A stretch of DNA of 64,000 nucleotides, from positions 682,001 to 746,000 of the forward strand of contig NW_024468912.1 in the NCBI RefSeq assembly GCF_011745365.1. The letters run 5' to 3'. This DNA is from Cryphonectria parasitica EP155. Lineage: Eukaryota > Ascomycota > Sordariomycetes > Diaporthales > Cryphonectriaceae. Within the stretch, counting starts at the first letter, position 1. Each line of letters opens with the position of its first letter. A model generated the notes under the pieces. The model did no database searches, had not been told where the DNA came from, and worked only from the letters and a program-made list of their open reading frames with translations. Below are positions 24,365-31,449 of the stretch, piece by piece. The position numbers were made by a program, and so were the translations under genes.

Positions 24365-25811
24365 ACATATATACACATATATATATATTGATTAGTTTTA
24401 CATACTATTCGCCCACCACGATGCAATCCTCTTCATCAGTAACTAATTAGATATCGTTCTCTTCATTCTGACTATCCTCATCTTGATTGACTGCCATTTG
24501 GGCCCTCTGTATAGCCTCAATATCCGCAAACTTCGAATTCGGGCTTACATCAATCTTCCTTCTTTTAGTAGGCCTCATAGTCTCAACTTGCTTTTCCAAT
24601 GCTTTATTTCTTTCCAAGGCTTGAGCAAACTCTATATCCCTCTTGCTATATGCTTTCTTTATCTTCCTGAACAGTAGACGTTGCTCTGGTACTGATAAAA
24701 GACGGTTCCGGTTCTGTAGTAGCTGTTAGTATAGTTGTTTAGCCTTTTGAGGAGTTGAAAAGGAAGCTGGCTGGCGTAAGGAAGCTTTGGGGGGTAGCTG
24801 AGGTGCTGTTGATCGTGATGAGCCTGAATTTGACTGAGTTTGAAGGTGTAGTTGGCTGTTTTCAAGGAGAAGAGGGCTCAGGGGTGGTTTGGATAGCCTG
24901 AGAGGCTACAGATCAGTTGCTTTCCATCCAGATCTGATATTCTGGCTTGAAAGACCTTCTATACGAGCCTGGCGATAGTACTTGAGGAAAGTTCGCTTGC
25001 TAAAGACTGTTGAATCCCCCCATTGGTTCTCAAGGCTGACTTTCGTTCTATAGGCTCGTTTGAGAAACGAGAAGATTCCGAGATCAAGGGATTGAAGTAC
25101 ATGAGAGGTATAAGGAGATAAATAGATCAACAGGATGTTGTATTGATAGCATTGCTATATAAACTCCTCAGTTGTATAGCTGCTGTGGCTATCTAAGATC
25201 AATAGTCTGGCTTCTAAGGGATCTGCTGGCTAGCTGCCTGGAATGAAGATCTTTTCCAGCTACTCGAGGGCTATTGCATTATTTATTCATCTGTTTTGAG
25301 TAGCTGTGAACTTCCAGCTATCAAAAGGCTGTAAAAGAAGAGAAAACTATTGCTATTGAACTATTTTTCTCTTAAAGATAACCAAAGGGAAGAGATAAGC
25401 ATCTGTAGCAGAGATATACTCGAGAAAAGAGATCTAGGCTCTTAATCCAAGCTCTTTCTTTTGGATTGAACGTAAGAAAGAGCTACTAAGGATTAATCCA
25501 TTCGCTTCTTAGCTCTCTAATATTCCAGCCTCATCTATATTCTATCGATTAGCTGGCTTAATAGCTTAAATCTGAGGAAGATCGAAGAGACGAAACCAAG
25601 GCTGTATTATCTCTGTTGTTACGCTATTAGTTCGAGCTGAGGCAATCCTTCTCATCCTCCGGACCCTTATCTCTGGATTTCTCTTCAAAAAAGCGCCAGT
25701 CCACTTGGTACCAAAAGATTAATCATCGCTATGGATATAAAGAATCTTCTGAGCAAAGTATCTTAGCTCTAAATGGCTTGGTGGAAGCCCGAGGCTTTCC
25801 TGGACAAGGAT

Positions 25812-26165: not shown

Positions 26166-27620
26166 TCAACATCATTAGCCCCTTTCTCAAGAAGCTGGAC
26201 AATCTGTCCATGTCCTCCCGATAAAGCAGAAGAAAGAGCACTGTTCAAATCATCAGCTCCTCTATCAAGAAGCATCATATCCTCTTAATGAAGCAGAAGA
26301 AAGAGCACTGTTCATCACATCAGCTCCTTTATCAAGAAGCATCTGAACAATCTGTTCATATCCTCCTCTTGCAGCTACTTGAAGAGTATTGTTCAAATCA
26401 TCAGCTCCTTTATCAAGAAGCATCTGAACAATCTGTTCATATCCTCTTATTGCAGCTGCTTGAAGAGCACTGTTCAAATTATCAGCTCCTTTATCAAGAA
26501 GCATCTAAATAATCTGTTTATATTCTTCTATTATAGCTGCTTGAAGAGCACTGCTATAGTATTTGCTCTGGATATTCATATCAGCTCCTTTATCAAGAAG
26601 CATCTGAACAATCTGTTCATATCCTTCTATTGCAGCTGCTTGAAGAGCACTGCCATAGTATTTGCTCTGGATATTCACATCAGCTCCTTTATCAAGAAGC
26701 ATCTGAACAATCTGTTCATATCCTCTTATTACAGCTGCTTGAAGAGTACTGTTCAAATCATCAGCTTCTTTATTAAGAAGCATCTGAACAATCTGTTCAT
26801 ATTCTCCTCTTGCAGCTACTTGAAGAGCACTATTCAAATCATCAGCTTCTTTATCAAGAAGCATCTGAACAATCTGTTCATATCCTCTTATTGCAGCTGC
26901 TTAAAGAGCACTATTCAAATTATCAGCTCCTTTATCAAGAAGCATCTGAACAATCTGTTCATATCCTCTTCTTGCAGCTGCTTGAAGAGCACTATTCAAA
27001 TCATCAGCTTCTTTATCAAGAAGTATCTGAACAATCTGTTCATATCCTCTTATTGCAGCTACTTGAAGAGTACTATTCAAATCATCAGCTTCTTTATCAA
27101 GAAGCATCTGAACAATCTATTCATATTCTCCTCTTGCAGCTGCTTGAAGAGCATTATTCAAATTATTAGCTCCTTTATCAAGAAGCATCTGAACAATCTG
27201 TTTATATTCTCCTCTTGTAGCTGCTTGAAAAGCATTATTCAAATTATTAGCTTCTTTATTAAGAAGCATCTGAATAATCTGTTTATATTTTCCTCTTGCA
27301 GCTACTTGAAGAATACTATTCAAATCATCAGCTTCTTTATCAAGAAGCATTTGAATAATCTGTTTATATTCTTTTATTGCAGCTGCTTGAAGAGCACTGC
27401 TATAGTATTTGCTCTGAATATTTACATCAGCTTCTTTATTAAGAAGCATCTGAACAATCTATTCATATTCTCTTATTATAACTGCTTAAAGAGTACTGTT
27501 CAAATTATTAGCTCCTTTATTAAGAAGCATCTGAATAATCTGTTTATATTCTCCTTTTACAGCTACTTAAAGAGCACTATTCAAATTATTAGCTTCTTTA
27601 TCAAGAAGCATCTGAACAAT
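26166..27620 (-). pseudogene. Distal ankyrin array of the NLR, inactivated by nonsense mutations and one deletion
   Basis: The same reading frame as the NLR continues through about 17 more ankyrin units. In-frame stops occur at 27621, 27567, 27486, 27459, 27117, 26901 and 26505. Each sits where other repeats have CAG or CAA, so each is a C-to-T change in CpA. Near 26277 one unit lacks 14 bp relative to its neighbours, which shifts the frame. The last unit (DRGADDLNSALSSALSGGHGQIVQLLEKGANDVD) runs up to the TA at 26164, where the transposon begins. Seven stops in a frame that is otherwise intact show that the ancestral protein had about 30 repeats. Confidence 0.85.
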
Positions 27621-28680
27621 CTATTCATATCCTCTTATTACAGCTGCTTGAAGAGCATTATTCAAATTATCAGCTTCTTTATCAAAAAGCATCTGAACAA
27701 TCTGTTCATATCCTTCTCTTGCAGCTGCTTGAAGAGCACTATTCAAATTATCAGCTCCTTTATTAAGAAGTATCTGAACAATCTGTTCATATTCTCTTAT
27801 TGCAGCTGCTTGAAGAGCACTATTCAAATCATCAGCTTCTTTATCAAGAAGCATCTGAACAATCTGTTCATATTCTCCTCTTGCAGCTGCTTGAAGAGCA
27901 CTGTTCAAATCATCAGCTTCTTTATCAAGAAGCATCTGAACAATCTGTTCATATTCTCCTCTTGTAGCTGCTTGAAGAGCACTGTTCAAATCATCAGCTC
28001 CTTTATTAAGAAGCATCTGAACAATCTGTTCATATCCTCCTCTTGCAGCTATTTGAAGAGCACTGTTCAAATCATCAGCTTCTTTATCAAGAAGCATCTG
28101 AACAATCTGTTCATATCCTCCTCTTGCAGCTGCTTGAAGAGCACTATTCAAATTATTAGCTCCTTTATCAAGAAGCATCTGAATAATCTGTTCATATCCT
28201 CCTCTTGCAGCTATTTGAAGAGCACTGTTCAAATCATCAGCTCCTTTATCAAGAAGTATCTGAATAATCTGTTCATATCCTCCTCTTGCAGCTGCTTGAA
28301 GAGCACTGTTCAAATCATCAGCTCCTTTATCAAGAAGCATCTGAACAATCTGTTCATATCCTCCTCTTGCAGCTATTTGAAGAGCACTGCCATGGTTTCC
28401 ATTCTGGATATTCACATTAGCTCCTTTATCAAGAAGCATCTGAACAATCTGTTCATATCCTCTTATTGCAGCTGCTTGAAGAGTACTGTTCAAATCATCA
28501 GCTCCTTTATCAAGAAGCATCTGAACAATCTGTTCATATCCTCTCAATAAAGCAGCTTGAAGAGCACTGTTCAAATCATCAGCTCCTTTATCAAGAAGCA
28601 TCTGAACAATCTGTTCATGTCCTTTGGCTGAAGCTGCTGTGAGAGCATTGCTGTGATTTCCGCCCTGGACATTCACATCA
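26180..28680 (-). repeat. Tandem array of 81-bp ankyrin-coding units
   Basis: About 30 head-to-tail copies of an 81-bp unit encode 27 residues of the type GADDLNSALQAAARGGYEQIVQMLLDK. A few units are 99 bp (33 residues, with VNIQNGNHGSAL in place of DLNSAL), at about 28390-28420, 27400, 26655 and 26565. Copies are nearly identical at the proximal end (28000-28660) and increasingly mutated in the middle (27100-27620). The differences are dominated by CA to TA and TG to TA on the top strand. Confidence 0.93.
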
Positions 28681-31449
28681 GCACCTCTATTGAGCAGTGT
28701 TGTCACTGCCTGCTTGAACCCTCCTTGAGAAGCATAATACAAGCCTCCTGCTTCTACATCCGACTTTCCTGGGAGGGCTTTCCAAGGCCAGTCAGGATTA
28801 AACAACTGATAGCATGTTGTATAGAAACCGGGATCCGTAAAAAAAGCTTGGACTAGACTCGCCACACTCTCCTCGTCCTCCACCATGGCGGCATGGCGTG
28901 ACCAGTACTCGGAACAGTACAAGGCGAATGGACGCGACTCCAGAATTGTGTAGATAGAGTCAGTCTCGTTCAATTCTCGCAAGTAGGAGAGGCAGGTTTC
29001 TGCAAAAGTGATTCTGGCTGCTCTGTCGCCAAAATACTTGTTGATTCCAGGCTTCAATAGATTGGGAGGCTTAGAGAGGAAGAACTCCTTGACTGAGAAG
29101 TGAGCGAGCTGCATCTCAACAATTTCTTCTTCTCCAGTGTCTCTTGTTGTGAGGATCACTAGGCTGGAGCAGTACCGTGATATCTCGAGAGGATCGGGCA
29201 TGCGGTTGATAGGATTGAATCGGGGTCTCTCCGATGGTTGTACTGCGATCGCATCGACAGCCTCGTCGAGACGCAACGCACGGTCCGATAATATCAGGAA
29301 ATGTAAGATTCGAGCAGTAGAGGGTAGATGCATCTCAGGAATGCTCTCAAGTATCCGCGCATATGTGGCGCTCAATGTTTCGGGCAAGGATGATAAGGCC
29401 TTCTTCAACAAGAAATAGTCTGTGCAATCTTTGAGGATTTGCAGCTGACATGCTACCCAGCGAAACCTGCATACACTTGATTAGTTGCACCAATGACAGT
29501 ATAAGGACATTATACATACATGCCGTCGCTCTTAGCTTGTAGAACGCGCTCGATTTCCTGCTGTACCTCTGGACGCTTGCGCCATCTCTTGAGGTCGTCA
29601 TGTTTTGTAACTCGTTCGTGGATGAAGTTGTGGATATCCTTTGCAACAAGATGGCTCTCTAGGCAAAGAACCCATTCCTTCTTGGCAAAACTCTCAATTG
29701 CTGACTTGATATCGTTTTCTGGGCGGCTAGTGACGAGCAGGTGTAGGCTTTTGTGGCGCAAGTGGAGATTCTCGAGCCACTTTAGAAGCCCTGGCGCTGG
29801 GGACCCGTCTCGAGTTTTGCACTCGTCAAGTGCATCGAGGATGACCCAGACCTCACCAGCATCTTCGAGCATCTTCTCAAAGGTGCTGGATAGTTCTTGA
29901 GTACTTGGCTGCTCTCTGCCTTTCTGGGACCAGAGCAGATCCAAGTGTTTCTGCGACTGTGGCTCCTTGTAGTAGAGCTGACTGATAAGGGATCGAACTG
30001 CATTGTCTAGTGACTCCTTGCGGCTATCGGTGAAGTCGAAGTAGAAATAGAGCAACAAGATGTCGGAATCGCCATCGGAAGGAGTCTGTTGGAGATGGTC
30101 GACAATGGCAGAGCTGAGCACTGTCTTGCCGCAGCCGGGAATGCCGTGTAGCCAGAGGAAGGAAGCAGGCTCTGTCTGCCAGGTTGAAAAGTGTTCGCCT
30201 TGAAGAAACCATTGGCCTGAGCCCTCCTGGCGCGTGTCCCGAGCCCTCTGTTGGTTGGTGGAGTGGTCTATCGCGGACAGCCAGGCATCGAGTTTCTCCT
30301 GTCTCTTCTGCAGATGCATGCTGTCAAAGCCCGCTTTTGTATCGTGGTGAATCTCGCCCATCTTTTGGTTTACTGATATAGCATGTGTTAGAAACCAGAG
30401 CTCAATCCTATAAGAAGGGATGGTAATTAATAGGTCTACCTACTGTCCTGGAGAATCTTGACCGCGCTTGGGGTGTTTTGTACATCGCTCGCAGGGACGC
30501 ACGATAGGAACTCCTTGGCAAAAGCCGCCGCCGCCGCCGCTGCATACCTCTGCCACCGGTCGTTCTTGTGCGAGTCGGCGTAGTCGCTGATGCCTCGCAC
30601 GATAATGCAGGGGAAGCTGTTCATCAGCCCTGCTGCCTCCATCTCCAGACACATGCACTCATCACCAAGCTCCGCCAAGAGAGCGTCCCTCGCCTCGGCA
30701 TCCTTCACCAACGTGTTCCCTGACGCGATCAAGCCATAATGGATAACGGGATCGGATTCTTCACGTTCCTCGCGGGGAATCTCCTGTGCCGGATCGCACT
30801 GCTGGCAACTTCTCCTCCCTGCGGCATGCTTGTAGGTCGGCGCGAACAGCCTATCGTGCAGGCGCCCAGGAAACGCATAGCTTGGTTTTGTTGCAGTTCC
30901 CTTCGCCATTTGTGGGTATCTCTCGAGCATCTCTCCCAAGAACTCTGGAACTCGGGAGGGCTGCATCTCATGGGCAGCCTGCAGCGCGCCCAGGGCTGTG
31001 AGGAGAGCTTGGGGCGGCGCGTTGAGAAAGCCCTTGTGCTCGAACCGGTTCCCAGCATGGGCCTTGCCCAGGTCGTATTGAAGTACGCCGCCACCCGTTC
31101 CTGACGGCTGGCTCACGACGACATCGCCAAGCCGGATGTCCAAGTCCGGGATGCCAGCCCCAATGCCAACCATCAGGCCAACGCGGACGTTGGGAAAAGA
31201 GGAGAGCATATTTGTGGCAGTTGTTGCGGCTGATGTGGTCCCGTACACCCCAGCAGGCAGCGATGCAATCACGATGTTGTGCTCGGCGATACGGCCCCAT
31301 GCATATGTGTTTGGGTCACTGGTTGGGTTGCTGAAGTCGAGAGGCTTGTCGTGCTTCTCCTCGAGCATGGCGATGGCGGCGGCCCGCTCGATCGAGAGCG
31401 CGGCCACCCATCCGACTGTGTAGTCGTCGCGGTTCTTGGAGCAAGTCAT
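27621..31449 (-). CDS. NLR-type receptor: PNP domain - NACHT NTPase - ankyrin repeats (array truncated by nonsense)
   Basis: The model is complement(join(27621..29466, 29520..30372, 30444..31449)), 1234 aa to the first in-frame stop. Residues 1-335 form a nucleoside-phosphorylase-like (PNP_UDP) domain: VGWVAALSIERAAA, GIGAGIPDLDIRLGD, and CLEMEAAGLMNSFPCIIVRG followed by SDYADSHKN. The NACHT NTPase follows, with Walker A GIPGCGKT at about residues 412-419 and Walker B VWVILDALDEC at about 510-520. A helical linker (LPETLSATYARIL) leads to ankyrin repeats from about residue 866. The introns are 71 and 53 bp, and the joins read KILQD-INQKMGEI and KSDGM-FRWVACQL. Fungal NLRs of this build are thought to sense non-self (heterokaryon incompatibility, other organisms). 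Related PNP effector domains in immune proteins can degrade nucleotides such as ATP; activity here is inferred. About 12.5 repeats are translated before a CAG-to-TAG stop. Whether this shorter form works is open. Confidence 0.87.

What the first reader, a model, noticed from the sequence alone, without database searches (positions are those of the whole stretch)
26166..31449. PNP-NACHT-ankyrin NLR with a very long, young tandem ankyrin array
Seen: an N-terminal PNP-like domain, a NACHT with intact Walker A (GIPGCGKT) and Walker B, and about 30 near-identical ankyrin units in one frame. Known: fungal NLRs with highly similar tandem repeats are linked to non-self recognition, and their repeats change number quickly. 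Inference: this locus is, or recently was, a polymorphic recognition receptor whose effector may act on nucleotides.
Basis: partly seen in the sequence, partly recalled or inferred. Interest (0 to 1): 0.8.

Follow-up and report, generated by a model that had tools for sequence, protein, structure and literature searches.

The report
RIP-scarred ankyrin array in fungal NLR
A fungal immune-type receptor gene, very probably of the chestnut blight fungus, carries a long run of repeated ankyrin units that has been overwritten almost only by C-to-T changes, leaving its enzyme and switch parts open but cutting the receptor off after about twelve repeats.

Summary
The gene is real: a three-exon PNP–NACHT–ankyrin NLR on the minus strand. 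Its best database match is Cryphonectria parasitica EP155. Architecture, near-identical repeats and repeat-number polymorphism are already published for fungal PNP/NACHT/ANK genes.

In the compared columns of units 1–27, 114 of 117 departures from a reference unit are C→T/G→A; the other three lie in unit 1. CpT is avoided. Close transposon pairs in the same genome show the same spectrum (121 of 129 differences). Five other NLR arrays examined have stop-free array frames; the paralogous ankyrin array lacks the C→T excess and context bias. Hits are densest mid-array and show no clear copying between units. [quoted passage not shown] Standard RIP indices do not flag it. Most units are unusual 27-residue ankyrin repeats. 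Receptor function, polymorphism and enzyme activity are untested.

The parts
30444..31449 (-). Exon 1: PNP_UDP_1 (nucleosidase-like) N-terminal domain; ATG at 31449
   Evidence: Pfam PF01048 5e-11; model pLDDT 87.8, pTM 0.91, best PDB folds MTA/SAH and futalosine nucleosidases; splice join
30373..30443 (-). Intron 1 (71 nt, GTAGGT...CAG, CTAAC branch-like motif)
   Evidence: sequence; same junction in the database protein P0001
29520..30372 (-). Exon 2: NPHP3_N/NACHT NTPase, Walker A GIPGCGKT, Walker B VWVILDALDE
   Evidence: Pfam PF24883 1.1e-43, PF05729 3.2e-14
29467..29519 (-). Intron 2 (53 nt, GTATGT...CAG)
   Evidence: sequence; same junction in P0001
27621..29466 (-). Exon 3 up to and including the first in-frame stop: helical linker, two non-array ankyrin repeats, 12 complete array units and the start of a 13th
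26362..28621 (-). Tandem ankyrin array: first bases of units 1 to 28 (unit 28 itself runs on below 26362); mostly 81-bp (27-aa) units, some 99-bp (33-aa)
26505..27623 (-). Stretch holding the seven in-frame stop codons (units 13 to 26) and the densest C-to-T hits (units 13 to 19)
26166..26290 (-). Two distal degenerate repeats, one with a 14-bp deletion that shifts the frame
   Evidence: sequence
24924..25427 (-). Relic of a DDE_1 DNA transposon (1 TGA and 5 TAG inside the matched stretch) about 0.7 kb below the array

Best explanation
The locus encodes a fungal NLR (PNP nucleosidase-like effector, NACHT switch, ankyrin sensor). SHOWN: one spliced frame open to 27621. SHOWN: the array's units, nearly uniform apart from a short block with two main states, two unit lengths and the first units, have been overwritten by C-to-T changes on both strands, rarely at CpT. 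SHOWN: hits are denser mid-array and fall almost independently in each unit. INFERRED: the mutator is RIP, which sees the self-homologous array as duplicated DNA and does not see the single-copy PNP and NACHT exons. INFERRED: repeat exchange stopped before or at that time, so the hits were neither spread nor erased. INFERRED: the allele now makes a receptor of about 14 ankyrin repeats (two plus 12) with a dead 3' half, or is on its way to a pseudogene. INFERRED from family knowledge only: ligand binding to the repeats opens the NACHT and oligomerises the PNP domains, which then cleave an adenine nucleoside or nucleotide.
For: Spectrum: in the compared columns of units 1-27 (five-column block and the extra stretch of the four 99-bp units set aside), 114 of 117 departures from unit 4 are C-to-T/G-to-A; the other three are all in unit 1. 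With the block kept in, the 23 81-bp units give 117 C-to-T, 2 T-to-C, 12 transversions against the closest real unit. Context: CpA 78/397, CpC 23/54 (two columns only), CpT 13/378; no CpG in 26300-28640. Same-genome positive control: 9 stop-bearing DDE_1 transposon copies against their nearest stop-free copy (95% identity or more) show 121 of 129 differences C-to-T, with CpA 0.095, CpG 0.092, CpC 0.049, CpT 0.010. Negative controls: the paralogous array on contig C6 has 34 C-to-T, 8 T-to-C, 32 transversions, little context preference (CpA 0.039, CpC 0.037, CpT 0.023, CpG 0 of 44) and no stop inside the array with 142 glutamine codons left, against 7 stops at 81 glutamine positions here (Fisher p 0.0007; p 0.004 if the stop at the C6 array's very edge is counted); WD40 arrays L028 and L029 are open. 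Hump: rank correlation of hits with distance from the nearer array end 0.67. Independence: with row and column totals kept, the sharing seen at lags 1-12 is reached in at least 24 of 200 shuffles at every lag. DNA_methylase loci are present; PMC8545091 (passages) names rid and dim-2 orthologues and cites RIP evidence for C. parasitica.
Against: CpC is hit more often than CpA here, though in two columns only. The extra stretch of 99-bp unit 3 differs from that of unit 24 by 2 C-to-T, 3 T-to-C and 1 transversion (units 15 and 25 only by C-to-T, 3 and 2), so not all divergence in the array is of the RIP type. Purifying selection on the proximal part is not shown: 0 of 36 stops there against 7 of 45 distally, but p = 0.10 after allowing for total hits, and missense:silent ratios do not differ. 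Other tandem arrays in the genome escaped, which RIP alone does not explain. Direction is inferred from unit 4, the stop codons and ankyrin-conserved glycines, not from an outgroup array. No transcript was looked at.
Confidence: 0.8

Rival explanations
1. Slow decay of an unused gene: methylated cytosines deaminate to T over a long time and ordinary mutation does the rest, without a RIP event.
For: DNA_methylase-family genes are present and no CpG is left in the array; methylation would give C to T in several contexts.
Against: Ordinary mutation should add transversions, T to C and indels; in the compared columns of units 2 to 27 there are none. The PNP, NACHT and linker exons have no stop in 900 codons, 65 of them convertible to stops by one C to T or G to A step, and keep 85, 43 and 36 CpG.
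Confidence: 0.1
2. RIP leakage from the neighbouring transposon relic at 24924-25427 rather than targeting of the array itself.
For: A stop-ridden DDE_1 relic lies about 0.7 kb from the array; leakage of RIP beyond its target is described in PMC1805685 (passages).
Against: Hits do not fall with distance from the relic: correlation with array position 0.24 (p 0.23), with a mid-array peak at units 13 to 19 and 0, 2, 5 and 3 hits in units 24 to 27 nearest the relic.
Confidence: 0.05
3. A live, polymorphic recognition receptor in which the variation is adaptive diversification. It does not fully exclude the best explanation: a RIP-scarred, shortened receptor could still be live.
For: Polymorphic PNP/NACHT/ANK repeats are documented in Podospora (PMC4986451, section 17). 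The truncated frame keeps 12 array units, within the 7 to above 16 listed there. One five-column block varies between two main states outside the C to T pattern.
Against: Seven stops and a frame break. No missense excess in the open part. The C6 paralogue shows what a live array looks like here: transversion-rich variation at a few codons and no stop inside the array.
Confidence: 0.25
4. Assembly or annotation artefact: collapsed or mis-joined repeats.
For: Tandem arrays are hard to assemble. The deposited EP155 protein P0001 lacks most of the array.
Against: P0001 is explained by an implausible 1,635-nt intron over the same DNA. The seven stops fall only at glutamine positions, and base errors would not be 114 of 117 C to T in contexts like those of transposons.
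Confidence: 0.05

Closest known systems
[quoted passage not shown]
   Same: Same three-part architecture; ankyrin units nearly identical within the gene; repeat number from 7 to above 16 in Podospora and 21 in C. globosum
   Different: Here mostly 27-aa units (ankyrin repeats are normally 33, family knowledge), about 30 repeats in DNA of which 12 array units are open, and divergence mainly by C to T rather than at binding-surface codons
Podospora NWDp1 and NWDp2 pseudogenes inactivated by RIP (PMC1805685, passages)
   Same: NLR-family genes scarred by RIP in a fungus with highly conserved repeats
   Different: Mirror image: there the NACHT and flanks are scarred and the WD repeats are largely spared; here the repeats are scarred and the PNP and NACHT exons are open
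Paralogous PNP-NACHT-ankyrin gene on contig C6 of the same genome (L025; PNP exon 48% identical)
   Same: Same architecture; 24 units cut (22 of 99 bp, two of 150 bp), mean identity of the 99-bp units 94.8%
   Different: 33-aa units, no stop inside the array, transversion-rich variation at a few codons
MTA/SAH nucleosidases and bacterial immune PNP effectors
   Same: Best folds in PDB; PADLOC 'Effector, PN-superfamily' model E 5e-20; PMC10197012 (passage) says PNP_UDP was described in bacteria as an immune ATP nucleosidase
   Different: Only 11 to 18% identity in the 50 fold alignments listed; activity and substrate untested

Membership tests
Fungal NLR (NOD-like receptor) | N-terminal effector or signalling domain | tested here: met
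   PNP_UDP_1 5e-11
Fungal NLR (NOD-like receptor) | Central NACHT with Walker A and B | tested here: met
   NACHT 3.2e-14, GIPGCGKT, VWVILDALDE
Fungal NLR (NOD-like receptor) | C-terminal superstructure-forming repeats | tested here: met
   Ank_2 5.8e-81
Fungal NLR (NOD-like receptor) | Ligand-triggered signalling or cell death | not testable with these tools
   needs cells
NLR with high internal repeat conservation | Individual repeats over 85% conserved within the gene (threshold used in PMC4986451, passage) | tested here: met
   Mean DNA identity of the 81-bp units 89.8%; protein-level value not computed
NLR with high internal repeat conservation | Repeat-number polymorphism among isolates | not testable with these tools
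   only the EP155 record among the listed hits
RIP-mutated sequence | C to T / G to A dominated divergence of duplicated DNA | tested here: met
   114 of 117 in compared columns; transposon control 121 of 129
RIP-mutated sequence | Dinucleotide context preference | tested here: met
   CpA 0.196 vs CpT 0.034; transposons CpA 0.095 vs CpT 0.010. CpC is high here but rests on two columns
RIP-mutated sequence | RIP indices in the RIP range | tested here: not met
   Composite index negative in all three array segments. So the claim rests on the unit-by-unit spectrum, not on the index
RIP-mutated sequence | Dependence on a RID-type methyltransferase and the sexual cycle | not testable with these tools
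   DNA_methylase loci present; rid orthologue named in PMC8545091 (passages)
MTA/SAH-type nucleosidase | Fold and catalytic acids | tested here: met
   Top folds; E271 and D289 invariant and E21 in at least 90% of 28 sequences; EME and SD.AD align with solved nucleosidases; catalytic roles recalled
MTA/SAH-type nucleosidase | Measured substrate | not testable with these tools
   needs enzyme assay
vic (vegetative incompatibility) gene of C. parasitica | Genetic co-segregation with incompatibility | not testable with these tools
   No link seen in the held papers (search listings 20, 22, 61; passages 59, 63); the two primary vic papers are not held

The most novel reading that the evidence does not exclude
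RIP works here as a trimmer of an immune receptor's sensor. The tandem array attracts the mutator, single-copy effector and switch exons stay untouched, and C-to-T stops at glutamine codons set how many repeats are translated. A fungus could then change receptor length and surface without recombination, with hit intensity peaking mid-array. Along with this, the 27-residue unit (finger loop shortened by six residues) may be a distinct ankyrin variant made by deletion and then amplified.
Probability: 0.12. Interest if true: 0.75.

Novelty: new variant of a known kind. Interest (0 to 1): 0.42.

Why it matters
Fungal NLR arrays must stay repetitive to be reshuffled, yet fungi mutate repeats. Whether RIP feeds or kills such receptors was posed for Podospora (PMC1805685, passages) and the conflict is still discussed (PMC12258605, passages). 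This genome holds a same-genome comparison: one PNP-NACHT-ankyrin array scarred in its repeats while its other exons stay open, a paralogous array of similar length without the scar, and transposons with the same scar as a yardstick. That makes the question directly testable with long reads from many isolates. It also warns that the deposited gene model hides the array.

Tried and rejected
Standard RIP indices: no signal; kept as evidence against. A selection test for constraint on the open proximal half: not significant. Copying of mutated units between neighbours: an apparent excess at lags 1 and 3 is not significant when unit and column totals are both kept, so I dropped it. Structure of the array: the single-sequence model is poor (pLDDT 43.5, pTM 0.28), so nothing is claimed about the 27-aa unit's fold. 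A first transposon spectrum against the majority of all 20 copies mixes subfamilies (407 C→T, 233 T→C, 298 transversions). All 15 stop-bearing copies against their nearest stop-free copy give 326 C→T, 112 T→C, 143 transversions; only the 9 pairs at 95% identity or more give the clean 121 of 129. A search for a vic4–NACHT link in the held papers found no paper. A PADLOC scan of the NACHT exon gave only weak hits. Before counting I set aside a five-column block, the extra stretch of the four 99-bp units and units 28–30; the block is restored and the extra stretches are compared.
Full report
WHAT IS THERE. The window lies at C4:682001–746000 of a 43.8-Mb, 17-contig genome. The best protein match to the spliced product is 'Pfs, NACHT and ankyrin domain protein' of Cryphonectria parasitica EP155 (P0001). 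The two are identical up to the start of the fourth array unit except for one 18-residue gap. The organism is therefore very probably C. parasitica, though the genome itself is unnamed. The gene runs on the minus strand from ATG 31449. Exon 1 (31449–30444) is PNP_UDP_1. Exon 2 (30372–29520) is NPHP3_N/NACHT with GIPGCGKT and VWVILDALDE. Exon 3 starts at 29466 and holds a linker and ankyrin repeats. The introns are 71 and 53 nt with GT…AG ends; both junctions also appear in P0001. The 1,234-aa frame ends at 27621.

THE ARRAY. Cut on its conserved core, the array gives 28 regular units from 28621 down to 26362. Of the first 27, 23 are 81 bp and four are 99 bp. Two degenerate repeats follow; one lacks 14 bp and shifts the frame (sequence). 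Seven in-frame stops lie at units 13–26. So 'about 30 units in one frame' is right for the count and nearly for the register, and wrong for the open frame, which has 12 complete array units after two non-array ankyrin repeats.

A 27-RESIDUE ANKYRIN UNIT. Ankyrin repeats are normally 33 residues (family knowledge). Here most units have 27, with the finger-loop stretch shortened by six. Among the 120 listed homologues of the whole protein, 33 is the best period in 114. The one protein with best period 27 (P0038) has only 16% self-identity there. Among 120 more, listed for the array itself, 117 have period 33. Of 241 proteins held, only P0001 (the same gene) and P0121 (the query piece itself) have a 27-residue run at 70% self-identity. 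Only the best 120 of each search are listed, so cases elsewhere are not excluded. The predicted structure of the array is too poor to use.

HOW THE UNITS DIFFER. Measured from unit 4, units 1–27 show 117 departures in the compared columns. A five-column block with two main states (AGAGG and ATAAG; 99-bp units and unit 1 differ) and the extra stretch of the four 99-bp units were set aside. Of the 117, 114 are C→T or G→A; the other three are in unit 1. Of the 114, 37 are C→T and 77 G→A on the coding strand. By context: CpA 78 of 397 sites, CpC 23 of 54 (two columns), CpT 13 of 378. No CpG remains in 26300–28640. All seven stops are at glutamine positions of the unit. With the block included, the 23 81-bp units give 117 C→T, 2 T→C and 12 transversions against the closest real unit. 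The extra stretches of units 15 and 25 differ from that of unit 24 by C→T only (3 and 2), but that of unit 3 by 2 C→T, 3 T→C and 1 transversion: an older, ordinary difference near the array's proximal end.

CONTROLS IN THE SAME GENOME. Positive: PF03184 (DDE_1) matches 109 places, many with stops. I fetched 20 segments, 15 with stops and 5 without. Nine stop-bearing copies have a stop-free copy at 95% identity or more, and 121 of their 129 differences are C→T, with CpA 0.095, CpG 0.092, CpC 0.049, CpT 0.010. All 15 pairs give 326 C→T, 112 T→C and 143 transversions, as expected when subfamilies are compared. Negative: of 34 NACHT matches, 20 loci other than this one were fetched; five carry tandem arrays with a period of 60 bp or more, and in all five the array has a stop-free frame. 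In L025, the C6 paralogue, the frame's first stop lies at the array's very edge, at a position that is glutamine in the other units; it may be the gene's own end. That array has 34 C→T, 8 T→C and 32 transversions, little context preference (CpA 0.039, CpC 0.037, CpT 0.023, CpG 0 of 44), and variation concentrated at a few codons. No stop inside it with 142 glutamine codons left, against 7 of 81 here, gives Fisher p 0.0007; counting the edge stop, p 0.004.

PATTERN ALONG THE ARRAY. Hits per unit are 8–11 in units 13, 14, 16 and 17, 4 in unit 15, 6 in units 12, 18 and 19, and 0–5 in units 1–11 and 20–27. Rank correlation with distance from the nearer end is 0.67, with position along the array 0.24. 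Leakage from the transposon relic at 24924–25427 would make the distal end the worst, which is not seen. With unit and column totals held fixed, neighbouring units do not clearly share hits (the strongest lags, 6, 8 and 9, are reached by 24–28 of 200 shuffles). Each unit thus seems to have been hit on its own after the array had its present form. I cannot explain the central peak well: simple divergence of tandem arrays is expected at the ends.

MECHANISM. The best reading is RIP acting on the array as self-homologous DNA. Shown: spectrum, context, restriction of the stops to the array (900 pre-array codons hold no stop, with 65 that one such change would convert), and matching transposon scars. 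Known: C. parasitica has rid and dim-2 orthologues and RIP has been reported for a few of its transposable elements (PMC8545091, passages). Against: the usual RIP indices are negative over the array, because only part of the CpA sites has been used; an index scan would miss this locus. Not shown: that the open 12-unit receptor is under selection (0 of 36 stops proximally against 7 of 45 distally, p 0.10 in the test that allows for hit numbers; missense:silent not different).

EFFECTOR. The PNP model is confident (pLDDT 87.8, pTM 0.91). Its first 27 PDB matches are MTA/SAH or futalosine nucleosidases; uridine phosphorylases come in from rank 28. E271 and D289 are invariant and E21 is kept in at least 90% of 28 aligned sequences; their catalytic roles are recalled from bacterial MTA/SAH nucleosidase. 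PMC4986451 (passage) predicted the same activity for Podospora PNP domains, and PMC12881547 and PMC10197012 (passages) describe PNP_UDP domains as immune ATP hydrolases or nucleosidases.

WHAT IS KNOWN. Architecture, high internal conservation and repeat-number polymorphism are known for fungal PNP/NACHT/ANK NLRs (PMC4986451, section 17 read). RIP of NLR-family genes is known in Podospora, but there the NACHT and flanks are scarred and the WD repeats largely spared, which its authors explain by exchange with live copies (PMC1805685, passages). A Podospora strain with two stop codons in one het-d repeat is also reported (PMC12222747, passages). The opposite pattern seen here, repeats scarred and the rest open, I did not see in the listings and passages of my searches, which cover open-licence papers only.

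VERDICT. An ordinary family member with an unusual history: a new variant of a known kind. Interest is moderate, because the unscarred/scarred pair of arrays in one genome makes a standing question testable.

Noticed in passing
window 26712-28346 and 31033-31086: The deposited EP155 protein P0001 (1,043 aa) skips most of the array through an implausible 1,635-nt intron (starting GTTCAG) and drops 18 residues of the PNP domain (a 54-nt GT...AG stretch) that hold residues invariant in 28 aligned sequences (V122, Q124, D126); both look like annotation artefacts.
   Followed up: yes
window 24924-25427: Relic of a DDE_1 DNA transposon with six stops, 76-80% identical to the 20 copies fetched, 0.7 kb from the array.
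   Followed up: partly
G000 C6:612800-630999 (L025, L029): A PNP-NACHT-ankyrin gene with a 99-bp array and a NACHT-WD40 gene with nine near-identical 126-bp units lie within about 18 kb: an NLR pair, both with high internal repeat conservation and open array frames.
   Followed up: partly
window 26292-28550, plus strand: The antisense strand of the array has a 752-aa open frame, probably a by-product of units that are multiples of three; no evidence that it is a gene.
   Followed up: no
window 26300-28640: Not one CpG in 2.3 kb of the array, against 25 in the 2.7-kb C6 array; CpG may have been lost before the array was amplified.
   Followed up: no
G000, DDE_1 matches (20 of 109 places fetched): The fetched DDE_1 transposon segments range from stop-free to stop-ridden, and close pairs differ by nearly pure C-to-T changes, with CpA and CpG about equal and CpT avoided: a RIP-like context profile for this fungus.
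   Followed up: partly
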